Shown one piece after another: positions 34,218-42,820 of a stretch of DNA of 64,000 bases. The stretch is from an endosymbiont of unidentified scaly snail isolate Monju. GTDB taxonomy: Bacteria; Pseudomonadota; Gammaproteobacteria; Chromatiales; Chromatiaceae. Positions within the stretch are counted from its first letter, which is position 1. Every line of letters begins with the position of its first letter. The notes beneath the pieces are model-generated. The model made no database searches. It was given only the letters and a program-made list of their open reading frames with translations, and was not told the DNA's origin. The position numbers and the translations under genes are program-made. Location: the NCBI RefSeq assembly GCF_000801295.1, contig NZ_AP012978.1, positions 2,525,001 through 2,589,000 on the forward strand, read 5' to 3'.

Positions 34218-34329
34218 GGCTTCATTGTACCGGAGCTGACTGTGGCATATCGCGCCCCACCGGGAAATCACCGGCCGTGCTCCGTGCAGCCCCGGATTGC
34301 CCGGTGGCAACTTCAAGTTTCGCCTGGTC

Positions 34330-34345
34330 TGGCCGATACTTTGCC
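34330..34345 (+). promoter_or_regulatory. Candidate sigma-54 promoter of the PhnD-like/diguanylate cyclase pair
   Basis: TGGCCGATACTTTGCC has GG and GC separated by exactly 10 nt, with TGGC and TTGC intact. Transcription would begin near 34356, 28 nt upstream of the ATG at 34384. A sigma-54 activator gene follows downstream (36560). Such a match is expected a few times by chance in 64 kb on two strands, so position is the main support. Confidence 0.45.
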
Positions 34346-34383
34346 GAGAAGGCGCGATAACAACGACTGGAACCAACGGAATT

Positions 34384-35187
34384 ATGAAACACCTCCTGCC
34401 CGCGCCGAGACTGTTGATGCTGGCGCTTGTCCTGTACTCGACCAATGTCCTGGCCGCACGTTGCACCGAGACTCACCCCTGCCTGTTTGGGGTGTTTCCG
34501 CATACCGGCACGGCCCAGCTGAGGGATACCTATTCAGTAGTGGCCGAGGATCTGTCCCTCACATTGGACACCCCGGTCCATCTGGCCTCGGGCCCTGTCG
34601 GTGGTGGCTTTCGCAAAATGCTGGACCAAGGGGAATGGGATATCGCCCTGGTGGGACCGGGCAACTTCATCCTGCACGCACAACCCGCTGGTTACTTGCC
34701 CATAGCCTCCACCGGACGCCAGATCATCTATCAGCTCACAACCCTGGCAGAACGACAGATCCGGACACCGAAACAGTTGCGCGGACACCGACTCGGCACC
34801 ATGCTGCCGGATTCCAGCACCTGGCTGGTCACCATGGACCTACTCGAACAATACCACCTGGCACCCGCCAGGGATGTGGAGATCGTTCATTTTTCATCTC
34901 AGCGTGGTTGCCTTCACGCCCTCGTGATCGGGCGGGTCGAAGCATGCGTACTGGCCCGCCCGATCTTTCGTATCCTGCAACAGCAATATCAGGCCCGCTT
35001 TCTCATTCTTGCCGAAACACCGGAATATGCCGGACCACTCTACGTGGTGCACCCCAATCTGTCTGAATCACTGCGCCAGCGCATTGCCGACTACCTGCAG
35101 TCCCGGCCTGGCACAGGTCCGGTCAACCTGTCCGCACTCGACCCCTACCGGGAGATTGTCCGGCGACTGGGAAGGTTGTCCCCATGA
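34384..35187 (+). CDS. PhnD-like periplasmic substrate-binding protein
   Basis: This 267-residue protein has a Sec signal peptide (MKHLLPAPRLLMLALVLYSTNVLA) and the PhnD/phosphonate-binding fold: FGVFPHTGTAQLRDTYSVVAEDLS, then GEWDIALVGPGNFIL, TPKQLRGHRLGTMLPDSST and GRVEACVLARPIF. No ABC transporter permease or ATPase is nearby. Its stop overlaps the diguanylate cyclase start (ATGA), so it probably acts as a sensor part for that membrane protein rather than for uptake. The ligand is unknown. Confidence 0.82.
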   Translation: MKHLLPAPRLLMLALVLYSTNVLAARCTETHPCLFGVFPHTGTAQLRDTYSVVAEDLSLTLDTPVHLASGPVGGGFRKMLDQGEWDIALVGPGNFILHAQPAGYLPIASTGRQIIYQLTTLAERQIRTPKQLRGHRLGTMLPDSSTWLVTMDLLEQYHLAPARDVEIVHFSSQRGCLHALVIGRVEACVLARPIFRILQQQYQARFLILAETPEYAGPLYVVHPNLSESLRQRIADYLQSRPGTGPVNLSALDPYREIVRRLGRLSP

Positions 35188-36405
35188 AGATCCGCTGGTG
35201 GCACTCGCTGCGCCTGCGCATCGCCCTGGTCATCTTCCTGCTCGAAGCCGTGCTGCTGATCGTGGTGCTGTGGGAGACACAATCTCATGCCCTGTTCCGG
35301 GCCCGCCAGCTGATCCAGGAACAGGACGATATCGCACTGGCCCTGCTGGCCGCGGACGCTGAGCAAGCCATGATGACCCTGGCCTACGACCATCTGACCG
35401 ATCTATTTCGCCAGGCCGCCGCCAAGGCACACATCGATGATATCGTGCTCACCGATGAACGTGATATCGTCCTCGCCAGCAGCGATGCAGCGCTATTGGG
35501 ACGATCCTCGCTCAGCTCGCCCGACACCCCCGGTCACTACTCAAGCGCCTTGTCATTTGAAAACCCCTGGTGGTGAAACCGGTCTGCTACGGATCGTATT
35601 TTCCGACGACCGCCTGACACAGGTCTATCGTGAATCCTTGCGTCTTGGTCTTGCTATCGGCCTCTTCGGAATGCTGATCATTGCACTGGCAGGCATCGGC
35701 CTCGGACATCTGCTCACCCGGCGTCTCGACCGCCTCACCCGGCAGGCCGAAGCGATTGCTTCAGGCCACGATATCCGACCCGTGGTAATCGACGGCGCCG
35801 ACGAGATCACCGCCCTGAGTCAGGCCTTCAACCACATGGTCAGAACCCTGGACCGCCACGCCCGGCGCATGAAACGCATGGCATATCAGGACCCTCTGAC
35901 CGGCCTGGCCAACCGCCGGGCCTTCCGGCAGTGCCTGGAACGCGCGCTCAGCAGCGCGCAACACTATCAGATCCGGCATACCCTGATGTACCTCGATCTC
36001 GATCACTTCAAACAGGTCAATGACCGTTGCGGCCATGAAGCTGGCGATCGCCTGCTCGCGGAGCTCTCGGCGCTTCTGCGCAAGACCCTGCGCCTGCGTG
36101 ACACAGTCGCCCGGCTTGGGGGCGACGAATTCGGAATACTGCTCGATCGCACGAGCCTGGAAGAAGCCCGGCAGGTCGCCGAGAAGCTGCGGCGTGCCAT
36201 TGCCAACCTCCGTTTCCGCGCCTGCGGACAGGTTTTTCGTGTGGGTGTCAGTATCGGTCTGACGGAGGTCACGAGCGACATTCAAGATATCGAGCATCTG
36301 CTCAGACTGGCCGACCAGGCCTGCTATGCCGCCAAGGAAAAAGGGCGCAATGCGATCGTCGCCGCCCATCATGGGGACACCGACACTGGCGTACAGCTGA
36401 CCTGA
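35184..36405 (+). pseudogene. Membrane diguanylate cyclase (sensor-HAMP-GGDEF), frameshifted
   Basis: Two frames make one protein of about 406 residues. The first (from ATG 35184) gives a membrane helix (LRIALVIFLLEAVLLIVVLW) and a periplasmic sensor region up to SALSFENP. The second gives GGETGLLRIVFSDDRL, a second helix (LGLAIGLFGMLIIALAGIGLG), a HAMP domain and a GGDEF domain with intact RLGGDEF and an RLRD inhibitory site five residues upstream. The switch lies at CCCC (35564-35567); one C fewer joins the frames. The domains are otherwise well kept, so a sequence error or recent lesion is likely. Active, it would make c-di-GMP. Confidence 0.8.
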
Positions 36406-36559: not shown

Positions 36560-37921
36560 ATGGACTCTAGCCAAGAAGCCACCGAAAAGGATCCACCCCT
36601 GATCCTGGTGGTCGACGACGACACCGACCACCTGATCCTGGTACAGCGCTGGCTGATCCAGGCGGGCTACCTCGTCGATGGCGCCAGCCAGGGGCGGCAG
36701 GCGCTTGCACGCATCGAGCGCCAGCGGCCCGACATGGTCATCACCGACCTGTTCATGGACGAGATGGACGGCCTGGCCCTGATCGAGCAGATCCACCAGC
36801 GCGATCCACTGCTGCCCATCATCATGGTCAGCGGACAGGCCGATATCGCACATGCCGTGGAGGCCACACGGCGTGGCGTGGTGGACTTCCTGGTCAAGCC
36901 GGTAGACCGGGAAACACTACTGACGCAGGTCGCCGAGACCCTCCAGCTCGGCGCCCCTGGCTCCATTGGGCGGTCGGACTTCTGTTCTCGCTGTATTCAC
37001 CGATCGACCAGCACCAGCGAACTGCTCGAACGCGCGCGGCAGGCGGCGGCCAGCGAGACCCCCGTGCTGATTACCGGCCCCACCGGAAGCGGCAAACAGA
37101 TGATCGCCGAGTGCCTGCACCATGCCAGTGCACGCGCCGACAAGCCCTTCGTGGCCCTGCGCTGTGGCGCCCTGCCCGAACGCCTGCTGGAATCCGAACT
37201 GTTCGGGCATGTCACAGGCGCCTTCACCGGGGCTACCGAAGACCATCGCGGCCTGTTGCAGACGGTCCAGGGTGGAACCCTGGTCCTCAAGGACATCGAC
37301 GAGTTGCCGCTGTCGGCGCAGACCCGCCTGTTGCAAACCGTGGAAGAGATGCAGGTTCGTCCGCTCGGCGGCGACCGCGCCTTCCCCACCGACGTGCGCA
37401 TCATCGCCACCACCCGGGTCGATCTCGGCGAGGCCGTGCAGAACGGACAGTTCCGCGAAGACCTCTACTACCACCTCAAGGTGATCCCGCTACAAGTGCC
37501 CAGCCTGGCCGAACGGCGTGAGGACATCCCCGCGCTGGCCGAGCACTTTCTCGACGAACTGGCCCGCGAGGGCGAGACGCCCAAGCGCTTCGCCCCGGAT
37601 GCCCTGCGCCTGCTCATCGGCGCCGACTGGCCCGGCAACGTGCGCCAGCTGCAGAACGTGGTGGCGCATTGTCAGGCGATGACACCGGGCGACATCATCC
37701 CCGAGACCATGGTGACCGAAGCACTCGAGGGGCTTTCCACCACGCCACCGACTTTCGATGAGGCGCGGGCAGCCTTCGACCGGCGCTATCTCTCGAGTCT
37801 GCTGCGCGCAACCAACGGCAATGTCACCAACGCCGCCCGCCTGGCGGGCCGCAACCGCACCGAGTTCTACAAACTGCTGCGTCGTCACCGACTCGAGCCA
37901 AAGGACTACCGGCAGGGCTGA
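36560..37921 (+). CDS. GlrR-like sigma-54 response regulator with altered ATPase residues
   Basis: This 453-residue protein has a receiver (about 13-125; phosphoacceptor Asp in MVITDLFMDEMDG), a sigma-54 AAA+ domain (about 145-380) and a Fis-type helix-turn-helix ending NAARLAGRNRTEFYKLLRRH, which closely resembles GlrR/QseF. Walker A GPTGSGKQ and GAFTGA are intact. Several otherwise conserved positions differ: NC is RC in VALRCGALPE, the Walker B Asp-Glu is Lys-Asp in LVLKDIDEL, YYRL is YYHL, and LRERREDI is LAERREDI. ATPase activity may therefore be weak or absent. It is preceded by a 154-bp gap with no clear promoter. Confidence 0.85.
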   Translation: MDSSQEATEKDPPLILVVDDDTDHLILVQRWLIQAGYLVDGASQGRQALARIERQRPDMVITDLFMDEMDGLALIEQIHQRDPLLPIIMVSGQADIAHAVEATRRGVVDFLVKPVDRETLLTQVAETLQLGAPGSIGRSDFCSRCIHRSTSTSELLERARQAAASETPVLITGPTGSGKQMIAECLHHASARADKPFVALRCGALPERLLESELFGHVTGAFTGATEDHRGLLQTVQGGTLVLKDIDELPLSAQTRLLQTVEEMQVRPLGGDRAFPTDVRIIATTRVDLGEAVQNGQFREDLYYHLKVIPLQVPSLAERREDIPALAEHFLDELAREGETPKRFAPDALRLLIGADWPGNVRQLQNVVAHCQAMTPGDIIPETMVTEALEGLSTTPPTFDEARAAFDRRYLSSLLRATNGNVTNAARLAGRNRTEFYKLLRRHRLEPKDYRQG

Positions 37922-38020: not shown

Positions 38021-38416
38021 ATGAAACCGCGCATACTCATTGTCGAAGATTCCCTTTCTCAGCGCCAAACCGTTTGCCGTCAGCTGGCACGCTGCCATTT
38101 CGACCCGGTGAGCGCAGAAAACGGGCTGGAGGCCCTTCGGCTGGCGCGGATGCAGCCACCAGAACTGATCCTGATGGACATCGATATGCCTGAACTCGAC
38201 GGTCTTGATACCTGTCGCGAGCTGCAACGGGATCCCTTGACCCGCCATATTCCTGTCGTCATGCTGTCGTCCTGTACCGAGAAATCCTGTCAGCTTCGCG
38301 CACTGATGCGCGGCGCCATCGCCTACCTGACCAAGCCCGTGACCCGGGCGCAGCTGTGCCATACAATGACGCGTTGCCTCTTGCAACCACCGACCTGGTT
38401 TGTCAGCGAAGCCTGA
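38021..38416 (+). CDS. Single-domain response regulator (receiver)
   Basis: This 131-residue protein is a CheY-like receiver with no output domain. ILIVEDS supplies the acidic pair, ELILMDIDMPELDG the phosphoacceptor Asp, VVMLSS the conserved Ser/Thr and YLTKPVTRAQL the Lys. The start MKPRILIVEDS at 38021 fits the fold; an upstream in-frame ATG at 37934 does not. It begins the tight run of genes that ends with the hybrid kinase, which is its probable phosphodonor. Confidence 0.88.
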   Translation: MKPRILIVEDSLSQRQTVCRQLARCHFDPVSAENGLEALRLARMQPPELILMDIDMPELDGLDTCRELQRDPLTRHIPVVMLSSCTEKSCQLRALMRGAIAYLTKPVTRAQLCHTMTRCLLQPPTWFVSEA

Positions 38417-38433
38417 CGCGAAGACCAAAGACT

Positions 38434-38883
38434 ATGGCCAGAAAAGCAGACTCATCGCAGGAAAATACCACCAGCGCACCTGCCGATACCATGCAGCAGG
38501 TGCGCGAACTGCTGTTTGGCGAATACCAGCGGCAGGTCGAGGCCCGACTGGACAAGGTCTCCTCCGACCTGGAGCGGCTGCGACAGGACACAGAACACGA
38601 GCGTTCTGCTCTCGAGCAGCTGCTGGCGCAACGTATCGAGCAACTCGACGAGCAGACCGGCACCGACCTCGAGGCACTGGAATCTTCGCTGCGTAACGAG
38701 CTGCAGACGCTCAAGACCACTCTGGAGCAACGCATCGACGATCTCCACACCCTCATGGAATCCGAACTCCAGTGTTTCAAGGAGGAAACCCGTCAACAGC
38801 TCGACCAGTTGGAGGCCGCCAAGGTGAGCCGCAAGCAACTGGCCGGACTGATGCGGCAACTGGCCGACACTCTGGAAACCTGA
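38434..38883 (+). CDS. Coiled-coil protein of unknown function
   Basis: This 149-residue protein is almost wholly helical and charged. From about residue 20 to 149 it shows heptad-like runs rich in Glu, Gln, Arg and Leu (EARLDKVSSDLERLRQD, LRNELQTLKTTLEQRIDDL). No signal peptide or membrane helix is present, so it should be cytosolic and oligomeric. It lies 17 nt after the receiver gene and 5 nt before the OmpA-like gene, so it is probably part of the same unit, perhaps a scaffold. No family name is recognised with confidence. Confidence 0.7.
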   Translation: MARKADSSQENTTSAPADTMQQVRELLFGEYQRQVEARLDKVSSDLERLRQDTEHERSALEQLLAQRIEQLDEQTGTDLEALESSLRNELQTLKTTLEQRIDDLHTLMESELQCFKEETRQQLDQLEAAKVSRKQLAGLMRQLADTLET

Positions 38884-38888
38884 AAAGC

Positions 38889-40818
38889 GTGAGCAGGAGC
38901 CCCTCCGCGAGCAGGCGACCCGTCACGACGGCCTCGGGTGATGAGGCGTTGCAGGCCCTCAAGTCGCTGCTGCTCGACGAGGAAAAGGCCCAGATCGAGC
39001 ACCTGACCGAGCGTCTGGAAAACCCGACACTGCGCACCGAGGACGTGGCCGATGTCCTTCCCGACGCCCTCCGCCAGAGCGACCAGCAAGGCCTCGAACT
39101 CACCGAAGCCCTGACCGCACCGGTCACCCGTTGCATCGAATCGTCCATCCAGCAGAACCCCGAGGGATTCGCCAATGCCCTCTACCCGGTGATGGGGCCG
39201 GCGATCCGTCAGTCGATCACCAACACCCTGCGTGGCCTGCTCGAGAACATCAACCGCACGTTCGAGCACAGCCTGTCTATCCAGGGGTTCAAGTGGCGGC
39301 TGGAGGCCATGCGCAGCGGCATCCCCTTCGGCGAGGTGGTGCTGCGACATACCCTGGTGTACCGTGTCGAACAGGTGTTCCTGATCCAGCCGGACAGCGG
39401 ACTGCTGATGCAGCACCTGACCGCCGAGACGGTGGCCGACAGCGACCCCGATGCCATCTCGGGCATGCTCACCGCCATTACCCAGTTCGTGCGCGACGCC
39501 TTCCGGGCCGAGCACGACCAGGGCCTGGAAAGCGTGGAGCTGGGCGATCATACCGTGATCCTGGCGCATGGCCCCTACGCCTACCTGGCCGCCGTGGTGC
39601 GCGGCATCGCACCCTCGAGCCTGCGCGAACACTGTCAGGGCGTGCTCGAAAAACTCCATGCTCGTTACGCTTCGCTGTTGCAGAACTTCGACGGCAACGC
39701 GCTCGCACTGGAATCGGCTCGCCCGCTGCCTGCTGTCGCAACAACGCGAGGACGACAAGCCGCGACGCGGTCTCTCGCCGGCCCTGCTCGGGCTCCTGCT
39801 CCTGCTCATCGCCGCTGGGGGCTGGTGGGCCTACGGGGCCTGGCAGGACCACCAAGCCGAGGCCCGGCGCCTGGCACTGCAACAGGCTCTGGTGGAGCGC
39901 CTGCGCACCACGCCCGGGATTATCGTCACCGACGCCCGTTTCGGTCCCACGCTGTCACTGCGCGGCCTGCGTGACCCGCTGGCTCCCGCCCTGGCGCCCC
40001 TGCTGAACGGCAGCGGCCTGGCGCCGGATGCGCTGCGGACCACCTTCGCACCCTACCTCGACCTGTCTCCCTCGCTGGTGCTGGAGCGCGCCCGCCACAA
40101 GCTCCACCCTCCCGAGGGTGTAGACCTGCACCTGCGCGGCACCACCCTCGTGGTCTCTGGCGTGGCCGATGACGCCTGGATCACGCGACTGCGCCTGCAG
40201 GCCCCCCTGTTGCCCGGTATCGACACGGTCGAGGACCAACAGCTGAAGTCCTCCTCGGCCTGGCTGATGCAACAGGTCCGTGAGCGCCTCTCTCCGCTGC
40301 CCAAGGCAGTGAAACTGCGCCTGCAGGGAAAACGGCTCGAGATCACCGGGCTGGCACCACTCGCCTGGATCGATCAGGCCACCTCCCGGCTGCAGGACCT
40401 GCCGTTGCATGACATCCGCACCCAGGGACTCGAATCCCGGGAAACCCGCCGCTTCGACATACTGCAGTCCCAGATCGACGGCACCGCTGTCTACTTCGAG
40501 GAGGGCACCCGGCTTGGTGAAGAACAGCAACGGCAGTTGCAGATCCTGGCCGGTGACCTGCGGGAACTCGCCGACCTGGGCGGGAAGCTGGCACGGCGCT
40601 TCCACCTGTTGATCGTTGGACGCGCCGACGGGGTCGGCCTGCCTGCACACAACGAAGAACTGGCAATGGCCCGTGCGCGTACGATCCGACAAAACCTGAT
40701 CGAGCAGGGCGTACCGGAAGCCCTGCTGCAGACAGCGACCCGAATCGCCCCCACGCCCGGCTTCGATCCGCTGTTGCGACGCGCAGAATTTCGCATCGTT
40801 ACCAAACAGGGTGACTGA
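38889..40818 (+). pseudogene. Transmembrane protein with C-terminal OmpA-like domain, frameshifted
   Basis: Two frames give one protein of about 640 residues. The cytoplasmic part (about 1-280, from GTG 38889) includes FANALYPVMGPAIRQSITNTL and RHTLVYRVEQVFLIQPDSGLL, then a region (GMLTAITQFVRDAF, LGDHTVILAHGPYAYLAAVV) that looks like a roadblock/longin domain. After the frame switch (about 39715-39740) come a membrane helix (LSPALLGLLLLLIAAGGWWAYG), two BON-like segments and an OmpA-like domain (LIVGRADGVGLPAHNEELAMARA). OmpA domains bind peptidoglycan. One base too many, or two too few, explains the break. It ends 2 nt before the GTPase gene. Confidence 0.75.
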
Positions 40819-40820
40819 AG

Positions 40821-41324
40821 ATGCTGGCACGCAAGATCTGCATGGTCGGTGACTTTGCCGTTGGCAAGACGAGCCTGGTGGCCCGTTATGTCCACAGCAC
40901 CTTCTCTTCCGAGTATCACACCACCATCGGCGTCAAGGTGGACAGCAAGGTGCTGGAGCTGCCATCGGGCGATCGCTTGAAGCTCATTCTCTGGGACATT
41001 GCCGGCACCAGCGCCCTGAGCACCGTGGAAAAGACCTATCTGCGGGGCAGCAGCGGCTACCTGCTGGTCGCCGACACCACGCGGCGCAACACCCTGGATT
41101 CCGCCATTTCCTTGCAGGAAAAGGCCGAATCCATCATCGGTCAACAGCCGTTCGTCCTGTTGCTGAACAAGATCGACCTGGAAGCCCAGTGCGAACTCGA
41201 TCTGGACACGGTGCGGCAACTGAAGTCACGGGGCTGGGAGTCGGTCTACAGCAGCGCGCTGTCCGGCCAGGGCGTGGAAGAGGCCTTCGGCCGACTGGGA
41301 GAACATCTGGCAGGGATGACATGA
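40821..41324 (+). CDS. Rab/MglA-like small GTPase
   Basis: This 167-residue protein is a complete Ras-superfamily G domain. G1 is GDFAVGKTS (residues 10-18), G2 the Thr in YHTTIGVKV, G3 is WDIAGTS, G4 is NKID and G5 is SSALSG. Ras has Gln after DTAG; here it is Thr, which predicts slow intrinsic hydrolysis and a need for a GTPase-activating partner. There is no prenylation site or membrane helix. It starts 2 nt after the OmpA-like gene and overlaps the kinase start by ATGA, so the three are translated together. Confidence 0.9.
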   Translation: MLARKICMVGDFAVGKTSLVARYVHSTFSSEYHTTIGVKVDSKVLELPSGDRLKLILWDIAGTSALSTVEKTYLRGSSGYLLVADTTRRNTLDSAISLQEKAESIIGQQPFVLLLNKIDLEAQCELDLDTVRQLKSRGWESVYSSALSGQGVEEAFGRLGEHLAGMT

Positions 41325-42820
41325 ACGATAACGTGGACCCCATCGAACGCCTTCAGGGTTACCTGCAGACTGCACGGATGCAAGGAGTAAAGCCCTTCTA
41401 TTTGCTGATCGATGACGACTTCCGCCTGCGCGCGCCCCGTGGCCAGGCGCGCTTCTACGGCTTCGACGGCCTTTCTCCGGACAGCGATCTCTCCGACCAG
41501 TTGCTGTTCCTGGTGGGCCAGGACCAGGATCCCGGCGCCACCCTGCACCTGCCGATGCTGGAGCTGCCCAATGGCACCTACTGTGAACTGCACGCGATCC
41601 GCCTGAAGAACGGCTGGGGCCTGGCTTTCTGCGACGCCAGCATCCAGCAGCAGCTCCAAGCCCGTTACCAGCAGATGGCGCACGAACTGGCACTGGCCCA
41701 GTACCAGCTGAAACACCAGCACCAGCAACTGCAGGAGGCCAACGAGGCCAAGTCACGTTTCATCGCGCGCATGTCGCACGAATTCCGTACCCCACTGTCG
41801 TCCATCCTCGGCTTCACCGAGCTGGCACACGAGGACATGGGCGATCCCTGGCGACTGAATGCCGATCTCGAGGCCATCTCGCGCGGCGCCAATTACCTGC
41901 TGTCGCTGGTGGACAACCTGCTCGATCATGCCGTGCTCGAACAGGGCGAGCTGATCATCCATCCCACGTCCTGCGAACCCTATCGCCTGATTGACGACCT
42001 GGAACAGCTGTTCCAGCCGGCGGCGCACCAGAAAGGTCTGTCGCTTGCCTGGTGGCTGGATGCGGGGGTGCCCGATCACCTATGGATCGACGAGGTCAGG
42101 CTACGCCAGGTCATGGTCAACCTGATCGGCAATGCCATCAAGTTCACCCAGGAGGGCGGCATTACCGTCTCCATGGAATGGCACGACGAGCGCCTCAAGG
42201 TCCAGGTGGAAGACACCGGCAGCGGCATCTCGGAGAGCGAACAGGCCCGACTGTTCGAGGCCTTCATGCAGGCCGACGCCGGCAAGAGTGCGCGCGGCGC
42301 CGGGCTGGGACTGACCATCAGCCGCGAGATCGTGCGCCGCATGGGCGGTGACCTGACCCTGCGCTCCAGGCCCGGCAGGGGCACACGGATACGTTTTGAC
42401 ATCAAGGCTCCGGCACGCGCGGGCAGCGAGGCCGGCAAGGTCTCGCTGGAGGGCATGCGCATCTTGCTGCTGGAGCAGGATCCGGACATCCGCAAGCTGT
42501 TGACGATCTTCCTCAAGACCGCCGGTGCGGAGCTGCTGGAGGCCGGGGGACAACAGAAGGCCCTGGAACTGCTGTCGAAAAAACCGCAGCTCGCTCTCTG
42601 TCACCTGCTTGATCCCCCGCAACACCGCCTGCTGCTGCGGGTCCTGCGACAGGCGGGATTCCAGGGACCGGTGCTTGCCATCGGCTCGCAGGACGACCAG
42701 GACCTGCTCAACGAGATCCTGCGCGCCGGCTATGCCGATCTCATTACCACGCCCATCCGCCGTACCGAACTGCTGGCCCGCCTCACCGAGGTGCACTCCA
42801 AACAGGAAGATCGGGCCTAG
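41321..42820 (+). CDS. Cytosolic histidine kinase with a degenerate C-terminal receiver
   Basis: This 499-residue protein has an N-terminal sensor-like region (1-125) without membrane helices, a coiled coil, a HisKA domain (MSHEFRTPLSSILGFTEL, His about 153) and an ATPase domain with N box LIGNAIKFT, G1 VEDTGSGIS and G2 GAGLGLTI. Residues about 385-495 fold like a receiver (MRILLLEQDPDIRKLLTIFLK), but DD is EQD and the usual phosphoacceptor strand reads LALCHLLDPP, so phosphorylation there is doubtful. The kinase probably receives signals from the GTPase or OmpA-like partner and phosphorylates the lone receiver at 38021. Confidence 0.9.
   Translation: MNDNVDPIERLQGYLQTARMQGVKPFYLLIDDDFRLRAPRGQARFYGFDGLSPDSDLSDQLLFLVGQDQDPGATLHLPMLELPNGTYCELHAIRLKNGWGLAFCDASIQQQLQARYQQMAHELALAQYQLKHQHQQLQEANEAKSRFIARMSHEFRTPLSSILGFTELAHEDMGDPWRLNADLEAISRGANYLLSLVDNLLDHAVLEQGELIIHPTSCEPYRLIDDLEQLFQPAAHQKGLSLAWWLDAGVPDHLWIDEVRLRQVMVNLIGNAIKFTQEGGITVSMEWHDERLKVQVEDTGSGISESEQARLFEAFMQADAGKSARGAGLGLTISREIVRRMGGDLTLRSRPGRGTRIRFDIKAPARAGSEAGKVSLEGMRILLLEQDPDIRKLLTIFLKTAGAELLEAGGQQKALELLSKKPQLALCHLLDPPQHRLLLRVLRQAGFQGPVLAIGSQDDQDLLNEILRAGYADLITTPIRRTELLARLTEVHSKQEDRA

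What the first reader, a model, noticed from the sequence alone, without database searches (positions are those of the whole stretch)
38021..42820. Putative trans-envelope switch: OmpA-like membrane protein, Rab-like GTPase, coiled coil, hybrid kinase and lone receiver
Five genes are packed with 2-17 nt gaps or ATGA overlap. The OmpA-like protein has a large cytoplasmic part with roadblock/longin-like sequence, one membrane helix, BON-like segments and a peptidoglycan-binding OmpA domain. Roadblock proteins such as MglB regulate MglA-type GTPases, and the neighbouring GTPase lacks the Ras Gln (DIAGTS). A model follows: the OmpA-like protein anchors to the wall, senses strain or position, and regulates the GTPase, whose state is read by the kinase and passed to the receiver. 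I know of no described system with this composition.
Basis: partly seen in the sequence, partly recalled or inferred. Interest (0 to 1): 0.8.

Follow-up and report, generated by a model that had tools for sequence, protein, structure and literature searches.

The report
Wall-anchored Rab-like GTPase signalling operon
This is a bacterial gene cluster, of a kind first described from genomes in 2014, in which a cell-wall-anchored membrane protein probably sets a Rab-like molecular switch that a sensor kinase reads; the wall protein's unassigned domain looks like the roadblock/longin domains that work with Rab-type switches in our own cells.

Summary
The five genes are there and packed as described, with one correction: the "OmpA-like" gene is not one open frame in this window. 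It is split between two frames, while its close relatives have it in one. The composition is not new. Wuichet & Søgaard-Andersen 2014 (PMC4316618) described it as the Group 1 Rup neighbourhood: a GTPase lacking the G3 Gln, a coiled-coil protein, an "unknown domain"-TM-OmpA protein, and an output module with an invariant Gln. They left the domain unassigned and held that Rup GTPases do not pair with MglB-type proteins. The domain and the GTPase co-occur almost perfectly (29 of 30 domain-bearing genomes among 369) and usually sit side by side. The kinase N-terminus is a PAS-like domain plus a helix carrying the near-invariant Gln. That Gln stays even where the GTPase keeps its own, so it is not a simple catalytic swap. 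The kinase's own receiver is degenerate here, pointing to the lone receiver and NtrC-type regulator as targets. Function and binding remain inferred.

The parts
35184..36405 (+). HAMP-GGDEF (diguanylate cyclase) gene, split over two frames; upstream member of the larger cluster in same-genus locus L141
   Evidence: Pfam HAMP/GGDEF; L141 GGDEF open frame aligns in two frames
36560..37921 (+). NtrC-type sigma-54 response regulator; also next to the lone receiver in same-genus loci L141 and L143 (its end is seen at the edge of L142)
   Evidence: Pfam REC + Sigma54_activat
38021..38416 (+). lone receiver domain, phospho-acceptor Asp and Lys present; in five other gammaproteobacterial loci tested an OmpR-type regulator stands in this place
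38434..38883 (+). coiled-coil protein with a conserved C-terminal motif (K-x-x-R-x-x-L-A)
38889..39713 (+). OmpA-like protein, cytoplasmic part: helices (17-155) then roadblock/longin domain (157-275)
   Evidence: AF2 model
39727..40818 (+). OmpA-like protein, membrane helix, BON-like periplasmic part and OmpA domain, in a different frame from the cytoplasmic part
   Evidence: BON only in relatives
40821..41324 (+). Rab-like small GTPase (Group 1 Rup), G3 WDIAGT without Gln; only match of its kind in this genome
41321..42820 (+). histidine kinase: PAS-like domain + helix with near-invariant Gln118, HisKA, HATPase_c, degenerate receiver

Best explanation
A Group 1 Rup signalling operon. Shown: gene order, domain content, conservation, predicted folds. 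Inferred: a single-pass protein held to peptidoglycan by its OmpA domain carries, on the cytoplasmic side, a roadblock/longin domain that binds the neighbouring Rab-like GTPase and alters its nucleotide state (as scaffold, GEF or GAP), with the coiled-coil protein as partner. The GTPase docks on the PAS-like domain/helix unit of the output protein, where the near-invariant Gln lies at or near the contact, and so switches the kinase. The kinase's own receiver has lost its phospho-acceptor here, so phosphate should go to the separate lone receiver and/or the NtrC-type regulator next door. In this genome the wall anchor and the roadblock domain are in different frames, so the pathway may be broken, uncoupled, or only apparently split by a sequence error.
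For: Domain-GTPase co-occurrence: 29 both, 1 domain only, 3 GTPase only, 336 neither among 369 class genomes (Fisher p 1.5e-38, not corrected for kinship). Side by side in 26 of 29 other domain-bearing genomes and, from the GTPase side, domain within 6 kb upstream on the same strand in 55 of 68 named loci. Fold: Z 12.1 to chain A of the Fuzzy-Inturned/Rab23 complex (112 aligned, 2.9 A), 11.9 a LAMTOR chain, 11.7 Asgard Roadblock3, 11.6 MglB; Foldseek MglB E 1e-4. Profile-profile against 31 Robl_LC7 sequences: P 1.1e-4 over 76 columns; seven control pairs P 0.0053-0.64. No Pfam Robl_LC7 match in this genome at E <= 0.001 and one Rup-type GTPase. Output domain PAS-like (Z up to 10). Receiver of the kinase lacks the Asp in window, L014, L015.
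Against: No complex was modelled and I found nothing biochemical. Pfam Robl_LC7/longin matches are weak (4 and 2 of 54 members, best E 0.005); the profile-profile probability is only 56% (38% with the whole domain). PMC4316618 counts no Rup GTPase coupled to MglB (0 of 121). The roadblock/longin fold is also used by proteins not known as GTPase regulators (SNAREs, adaptor subunits), which are in the same hit list. Model pTM is 0.48 for the whole chain. G209 has the domain without a GTPase match at E <= 1e-25, and G315 and G299 have them on different contigs; G037, G147 and G396 have a GTPase match without the domain. In L070 and L071 the domain lies 4.9 and 3.6 kb from the GTPase. L132 and L138-L140 have no PAS-like output match. 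The gene is split in this window.
Confidence: 0.55

Rival explanations
1. The output protein is the GAP: its near-invariant Gln completes the active site of the Gln-less GTPase in trans, so reading the signal also ends it (close to the speculation of PMC4316618). The roadblock-like domain is then only a membrane scaffold or the GEF.
For: G3 Gln absent in 58 of 64 bacterial GTPases, window included, and in the 29 GTPases of the loci, L141-L143 included; Gln near-invariant in the output proteins.
Against: The six cyanobacterial GTPases that do have the G3 Gln (L059, L060, L062, L067, L069, L080) still sit beside outputs with the Gln, so the two are not exchanged. The Gln lies on the helix beyond the PAS-like core.
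Confidence: 0.25
2. The roadblock/longin-like domain serves only assembly (dimerisation with itself or the coiled coil) and does not touch the GTPase; co-occurrence reflects a shared operon.
For: Roadblock/longin folds can act as dimerisation or adaptor modules (recalled); adaptor and SNARE chains are among the hits.
Against: Near-perfect co-occurrence over 18 families of the class; in L025 the two genes are convergent, not one operon, yet still neighbours.
Confidence: 0.2
3. In this particular genome the locus is decaying: the frame break uncouples wall anchor and regulator, and the upstream cyclase gene is split too.
For: Two split genes with breaks about 4 kb apart; patchy presence in the genus (strong GTPase match in 3 of 7 other same-genus genomes).
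Against: Both halves remain open and similar to relatives (OMPN 68%, OMPC 47% to L014); receiver, coiled coil, GTPase and kinase are intact frames. A sequence error is not excluded.
Confidence: 0.4

Closest known systems
Group 1 Rup GTPase neighbourhood (Wuichet & Sogaard-Andersen 2014, PMC4316618)
   Same: GTPase without G3 Gln, coiled-coil protein, unknown-domain/TM/OmpA protein, output module with invariant Gln in its N-terminal region
   Different: Here the unknown domain is assigned a predicted roadblock/longin fold and the output N-terminus a predicted PAS-like fold; a lone receiver and NtrC-type regulator are attached; the OmpA-like gene is split in this genome
MglA/MglB (Myxococcus, Thermus)
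   Same: Small GTPase next to a roadblock-fold protein; two-component partners
   Different: The GTPase keeps the G3 Asp that MglA lacks; the roadblock-like domain is part of a TM/OmpA protein and below Pfam cut-offs
Actinobacterial conservons (CvnA-D)
   Same: Histidine kinase, roadblock-type protein and small GTPase in one operon
   Different: Conservon GTPase is of the MglA family; no CvnC-type protein seen here; the membrane span is on the roadblock-like protein, and none shows in the modelled 175 N-terminal residues of the kinase
Eukaryotic longin/roadblock GTPase platforms (Fuzzy-Inturned/Rab23, Mon1-Ccz1/Rab7, Ragulator/Rag)
   Same: Rab-like GTPase with a roadblock/longin-fold partner; among the closest fold matches of the domain
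   Different: Bacterial protein with TM, BON and OmpA parts; output is a kinase or other bacterial signalling enzyme

Membership tests
Group 1 Rup system | single-domain small GTPase (150-240 aa) of the Ras type | tested here: met
   167 aa, Ras family E 9e-28
Group 1 Rup system | no catalytic Gln in G3 | tested here: met
   WDIAGT
Group 1 Rup system | coiled-coil cytoplasmic neighbour | tested here: met
   38434-38883, similar proteins in the same place in relatives; coiled-coil nature judged from sequence and weak Pfam hits, no coiled-coil program was run
Group 1 Rup system | neighbour with unknown domain, TM helix and OmpA domain | tested here: met
   all three parts present, but in two frames in the window; one frame in close relatives
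Group 1 Rup system | output module whose N-terminal region has an invariant Gln | tested here: met
   Gln118 of the kinase; identity with the 2014 Gln is judged from the description, their alignment was not seen
Group 1 Rup system | placement in the Group 1 clade of the GTPase tree | not tested
   no tree was built
Roadblock/longin superfamily (cytoplasmic domain) | beta-beta-alpha-beta-beta-beta-alpha fold | tested here: met
   predicted model only: strands and helices 159-265, Z 10-12 to roadblock and longin chains
Roadblock/longin superfamily (cytoplasmic domain) | sequence profile match over curated cut-off (Pfam Robl_LC7 or longin) | tested here: not met
   no match for the window member; 4 and 2 of 54 members, best E 0.005; profile-profile P 1.1e-4, probability 56%
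[quoted passage not shown]
   Asp59 of WDIAG is present, and invariant in A5
MglA/MglB system | MglB homologue (Robl_LC7) coupled to the GTPase | tested here: not met
   no Robl_LC7 match in the whole genome at E <= 0.001
Conservon | four genes: kinase, MglB type, CvnC type, MglA type | tested here: not met
   GTPase not of the MglA type; no Pfam Robl_LC7
PAS domain (kinase N-terminus) | PAS fold | tested here: met
   predicted model, pLDDT 92; PAS chains at Z 8.7-10, FlrB PAS-like domain in Foldseek; no Pfam PAS match for the window protein at E <= 0.001

The most novel reading that the evidence does not exclude
Bacteria have a wall-anchored, trans-envelope counterpart of the eukaryotic longin/roadblock GTPase platforms: the 'unknown' domain of Group 1 Rup systems is the missing cognate roadblock/longin regulator of Rab-like (Rup) GTPases, which hand the state on to interchangeable PAS-fronted outputs (kinase, cyclase, sigma-54 activator). 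The pairing of Rab-like GTPases with longin/roadblock regulators would then exist across many bacterial phyla, with lone-domain relatives in Asgard-labelled archaea.
Probability: 0.45. Interest if true: 0.75.

Novelty: new member of a known kind. Interest (0 to 1): 0.52.

Why it matters
Group 1 Rup GTPases are described as very similar to the eukaryotic Rab/Ran/Ras/Rho group (PMC4316618, passage) and had no assigned regulator there. A fold assignment for their constant partner makes that open question directly testable with two purified proteins, and ties a Rab-like switch to the cell wall. The locus itself is one more example of a system on record since 2014.

Tried and rejected
Chance packing of unrelated genes: rejected, order conserved from both sides. 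A novel composition: rejected after reading PMC4316618. MglB as such: rejected on sequence, kept on fold. Standard phosphorelay hybrid kinase: rejected for this genus, because the kinase's receiver has His (window, L015) or Gly (L014) at the phospho-acceptor place; in the more distant relatives aligned (L017, L019, L041, L045, L048, L050, L053, L058) the Asp is there. Simple Gln swap between GTPase and output: weakened by the six cyanobacterial pairs with both. PDB sequence search with the domain profile gave only chance-level hits, best E 0.71. The archaeal lone-domain proteins gave no Pfam match better than E 0.07. No tree of the GTPases was built.

Circularity and dropped rows: the output-domain model (A2) was built from proteins chosen because they follow the GTPase, so its 58 of 68 hits are partly by construction; the set (22 of 26 loci with an adjacent GTPase) is the fairer count, and L132, L138, L139 and L140 had no match. 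For one search, seven of the 68 loci gave no downstream open frame by my rule (L016, L018, L027, L032, L046, L047, L076) and L022, L064, L065, L066, L072, L078, L079 and L081 were set aside, leaving 53 plus the window. A2 used 46 of those 53 plus the window. A4 used the window plus 56 of the 57 downstream proteins (L049 left out; L064, L078, L079, L081 had been dropped before). A1 used 53 of the 55 domains plus the window (L033, L040 left out). In the coiled-coil count L129 and L135 were dropped as wrong picks (66 of 68 kept). For the Robl_LC7 set 31 of 32 loci were used (L164 skipped). L146-type contig-edge checks were not made beyond that.

Literature: absence of a later study of Group 1 Rup systems, or of a roadblock/longin assignment, rests in an open-licence PMC library only. 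Seen: PMC4316618 abstract and outline, twelve found passages and the whole of section 18; all other papers only as search listings with abstract starts. Statements on what roadblock, longin, SNARE or conservon proteins do, beyond those passages and listings, are recalled.
Full report
What is there. Between 38021 and 42820 five plus-strand genes follow each other with gaps of 17, 5 and 2 nt and an ATGA overlap: a receiver, a coiled-coil protein, an OmpA-like protein, a Ras/Rab-type GTPase and a histidine kinase. The GTPase's nearest solved relatives by sequence are Rab14, a Thorarchaeota Rab and Rab23. The window lies in a single-contig genome of 2.6 Mb, which has one GTPase of this sort and no Pfam Robl_LC7 match.

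The OmpA-like gene is split. The cytoplasmic part reads in one frame to about 39713, the membrane and periplasmic part in another from about 39727. Relatives L014, L015, L017, L018 and L003 have 13 residues between two landmarks, where the window has about 11 nt less (L015 and L018 were printed out of frame there and read from the DNA); same-genus loci L141-L143 carry one frame of 653-656 codons. L006 shows a break of its own in the periplasmic part. A GGDEF gene upstream is also split against its same-genus relative, with its break about 4 kb away. This is either decay or sequence error; the data do not decide.

It is a known kind. PMC4316618 (section 18) reports that Group 1 Rup GTPases, which lack the G3 Gln, sit with a coiled-coil protein, a protein with an unknown domain often followed by a TM helix and an OmpA domain, and an output module (cyclase/phosphodiesterase or histidine kinase) whose N-terminal region has an invariant Gln. 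All of these are met here. [quoted passage not shown]

Conservation. A scan for the GTPase gave 68 named loci: 55 have the OmpA-like cytoplasmic domain within 6 kb upstream on the same strand (about 0.4-1.3 kb in 53 of them, 4.9 and 3.6 kb in L070 and L071). Of the other 13, five (L029, L036, L043, L052, L063) have under 1.2 kb of upstream contig, one (L025) has the domain gene convergent, two (L019, L042) lack it despite 8 kb of room, and five (L064, L076, L078, L079, L081) are in archaea-labelled MAGs; in L064, L079 and L081 a lone protein on the other strand matches only the roadblock part of the profile. From the other side, the domain is in 30 of 369 class genomes, and 26 of the 29 besides the window have the GTPase next door; the exceptions are L121 (GTPase on another contig), L125 (no GTPase match at E <= 1e-25 in its genome) and L130 (contig edge; GTPase on other contigs). 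At genome level the table is 29 both, 1 domain only, 3 GTPase only, 336 neither.

The cytoplasmic domain. The AF2 model of the window's own 275 residues with 53 relatives has mean pLDDT 82.6 and pTM 0.48: helices 17-155, then beta-beta-alpha-beta-beta-beta-alpha at 159-265. Foldseek ranks TRAPP, MglB, Rag/GATOR-complex and Mon1-Ccz1 chains first, E 5e-5 and up, 42 chains at E <= 0.001. VIA-align gives chain A of the Fuzzy-Inturned/Rab23 complex Z 12.1, a LAMTOR chain 11.9, VAMP7 longin 11.7, Asgard Roadblock3 11.7, MglB 11.6, all starting at 157-159; these are ties. A profile-profile comparison with 31 Robl_LC7 sequences gives P 1.1e-4 over 76 columns (probability 56%), against P 0.0053-0.64 in seven control pairs. 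Pfam itself gives only weak matches, Robl_LC7 in 4 and Fuz_longin_1 in 2 of 54 members, best E 0.005. So the fold is well supported by prediction, the family assignment moderately, and the function by analogy only; SNARE and adaptor chains are in the same list.

The output side. The first 105 residues of the kinase model as a PAS-like domain (pLDDT 92), followed by a helix from 107 carrying Gln118. Among 57 output proteins, window included, Pfam finds HisKA in 31, sigma-54 AAA in 10, class III cyclase in 3 and SpoIIE in 3 (first 25 of 35 families shown), so the PAS-like unit fronts different enzymes. G3 Gln is absent in 58 of 64 bacterial GTPases and in the 29 of the loci; the six that keep it still have the output Gln, which argues against a strict swap of catalytic residues.

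Phosphotransfer. The kinase's C-terminal receiver has His at the phospho-acceptor place in the window (His in L015, Gly in L014), while the lone receiver at 38021 and the NtrC-type regulator at 36560 keep their Asp. In five of five other gammaproteobacterial loci tested the regulator in this place is REC plus Trans_reg_C. The likely output is therefore transcriptional, with direct transfer to separate regulators; this is inference.

Coiled coil. The proteins upstream of the OmpA-like gene share a C-terminal motif, K-x-[DGSAEP]-[RK]-x-x-[LFMI]-[AS]-x-[LMFI]-[LMFI], in 55 of 66; most of the 11 misses show it in a looser form. It is a candidate contact site.

Verdict. Observation partly confirmed, interpretation partly supported: a new member of a system already described from genomes, with a fold assignment that supplies a candidate for the regulator the 2014 description lacked.

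Noticed in passing
window 35184-36405: HAMP-GGDEF gene lies in two frames against the 652-codon GGDEF open frame of same-genus L141, whose further C-terminal part has no counterpart in the window alignment.
   Followed up: partly
L064 6594-7268 (-), L079 1139-1648 (-), L081 2351-2857 (-): Lone proteins in archaea-labelled MAGs match only the roadblock part of the domain profile (E 1e-27, 2e-9, 2e-9), with no Pfam match better than E 0.07; the GTPase gene that brought in the locus lies about 0.7, 4.4 and 4.4 kb away.
   Followed up: partly
L121, L122, L125: OmpA-like proteins of 888-982 codons with an extra partial match to the helical part of the domain in front (extra matches in G315, G065, G209); L125's genome has no matching GTPase at E <= 1e-25.
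   Followed up: no
L116, L118, L119: Output proteins with two PAS-like domain/helix units, each with the Gln.
   Followed up: no
L020, L026, L028, L025: The PAS-like unit occurs as a free-standing 131-142 residue protein after the GTPase, with a sigma-54 AAA gene following in L026 and L028.
   Followed up: no
window 34297-35187: Periplasmic phosphonate-type binding protein gene (PF12974) directly before the cyclase gene; kept in L141.
   Followed up: no
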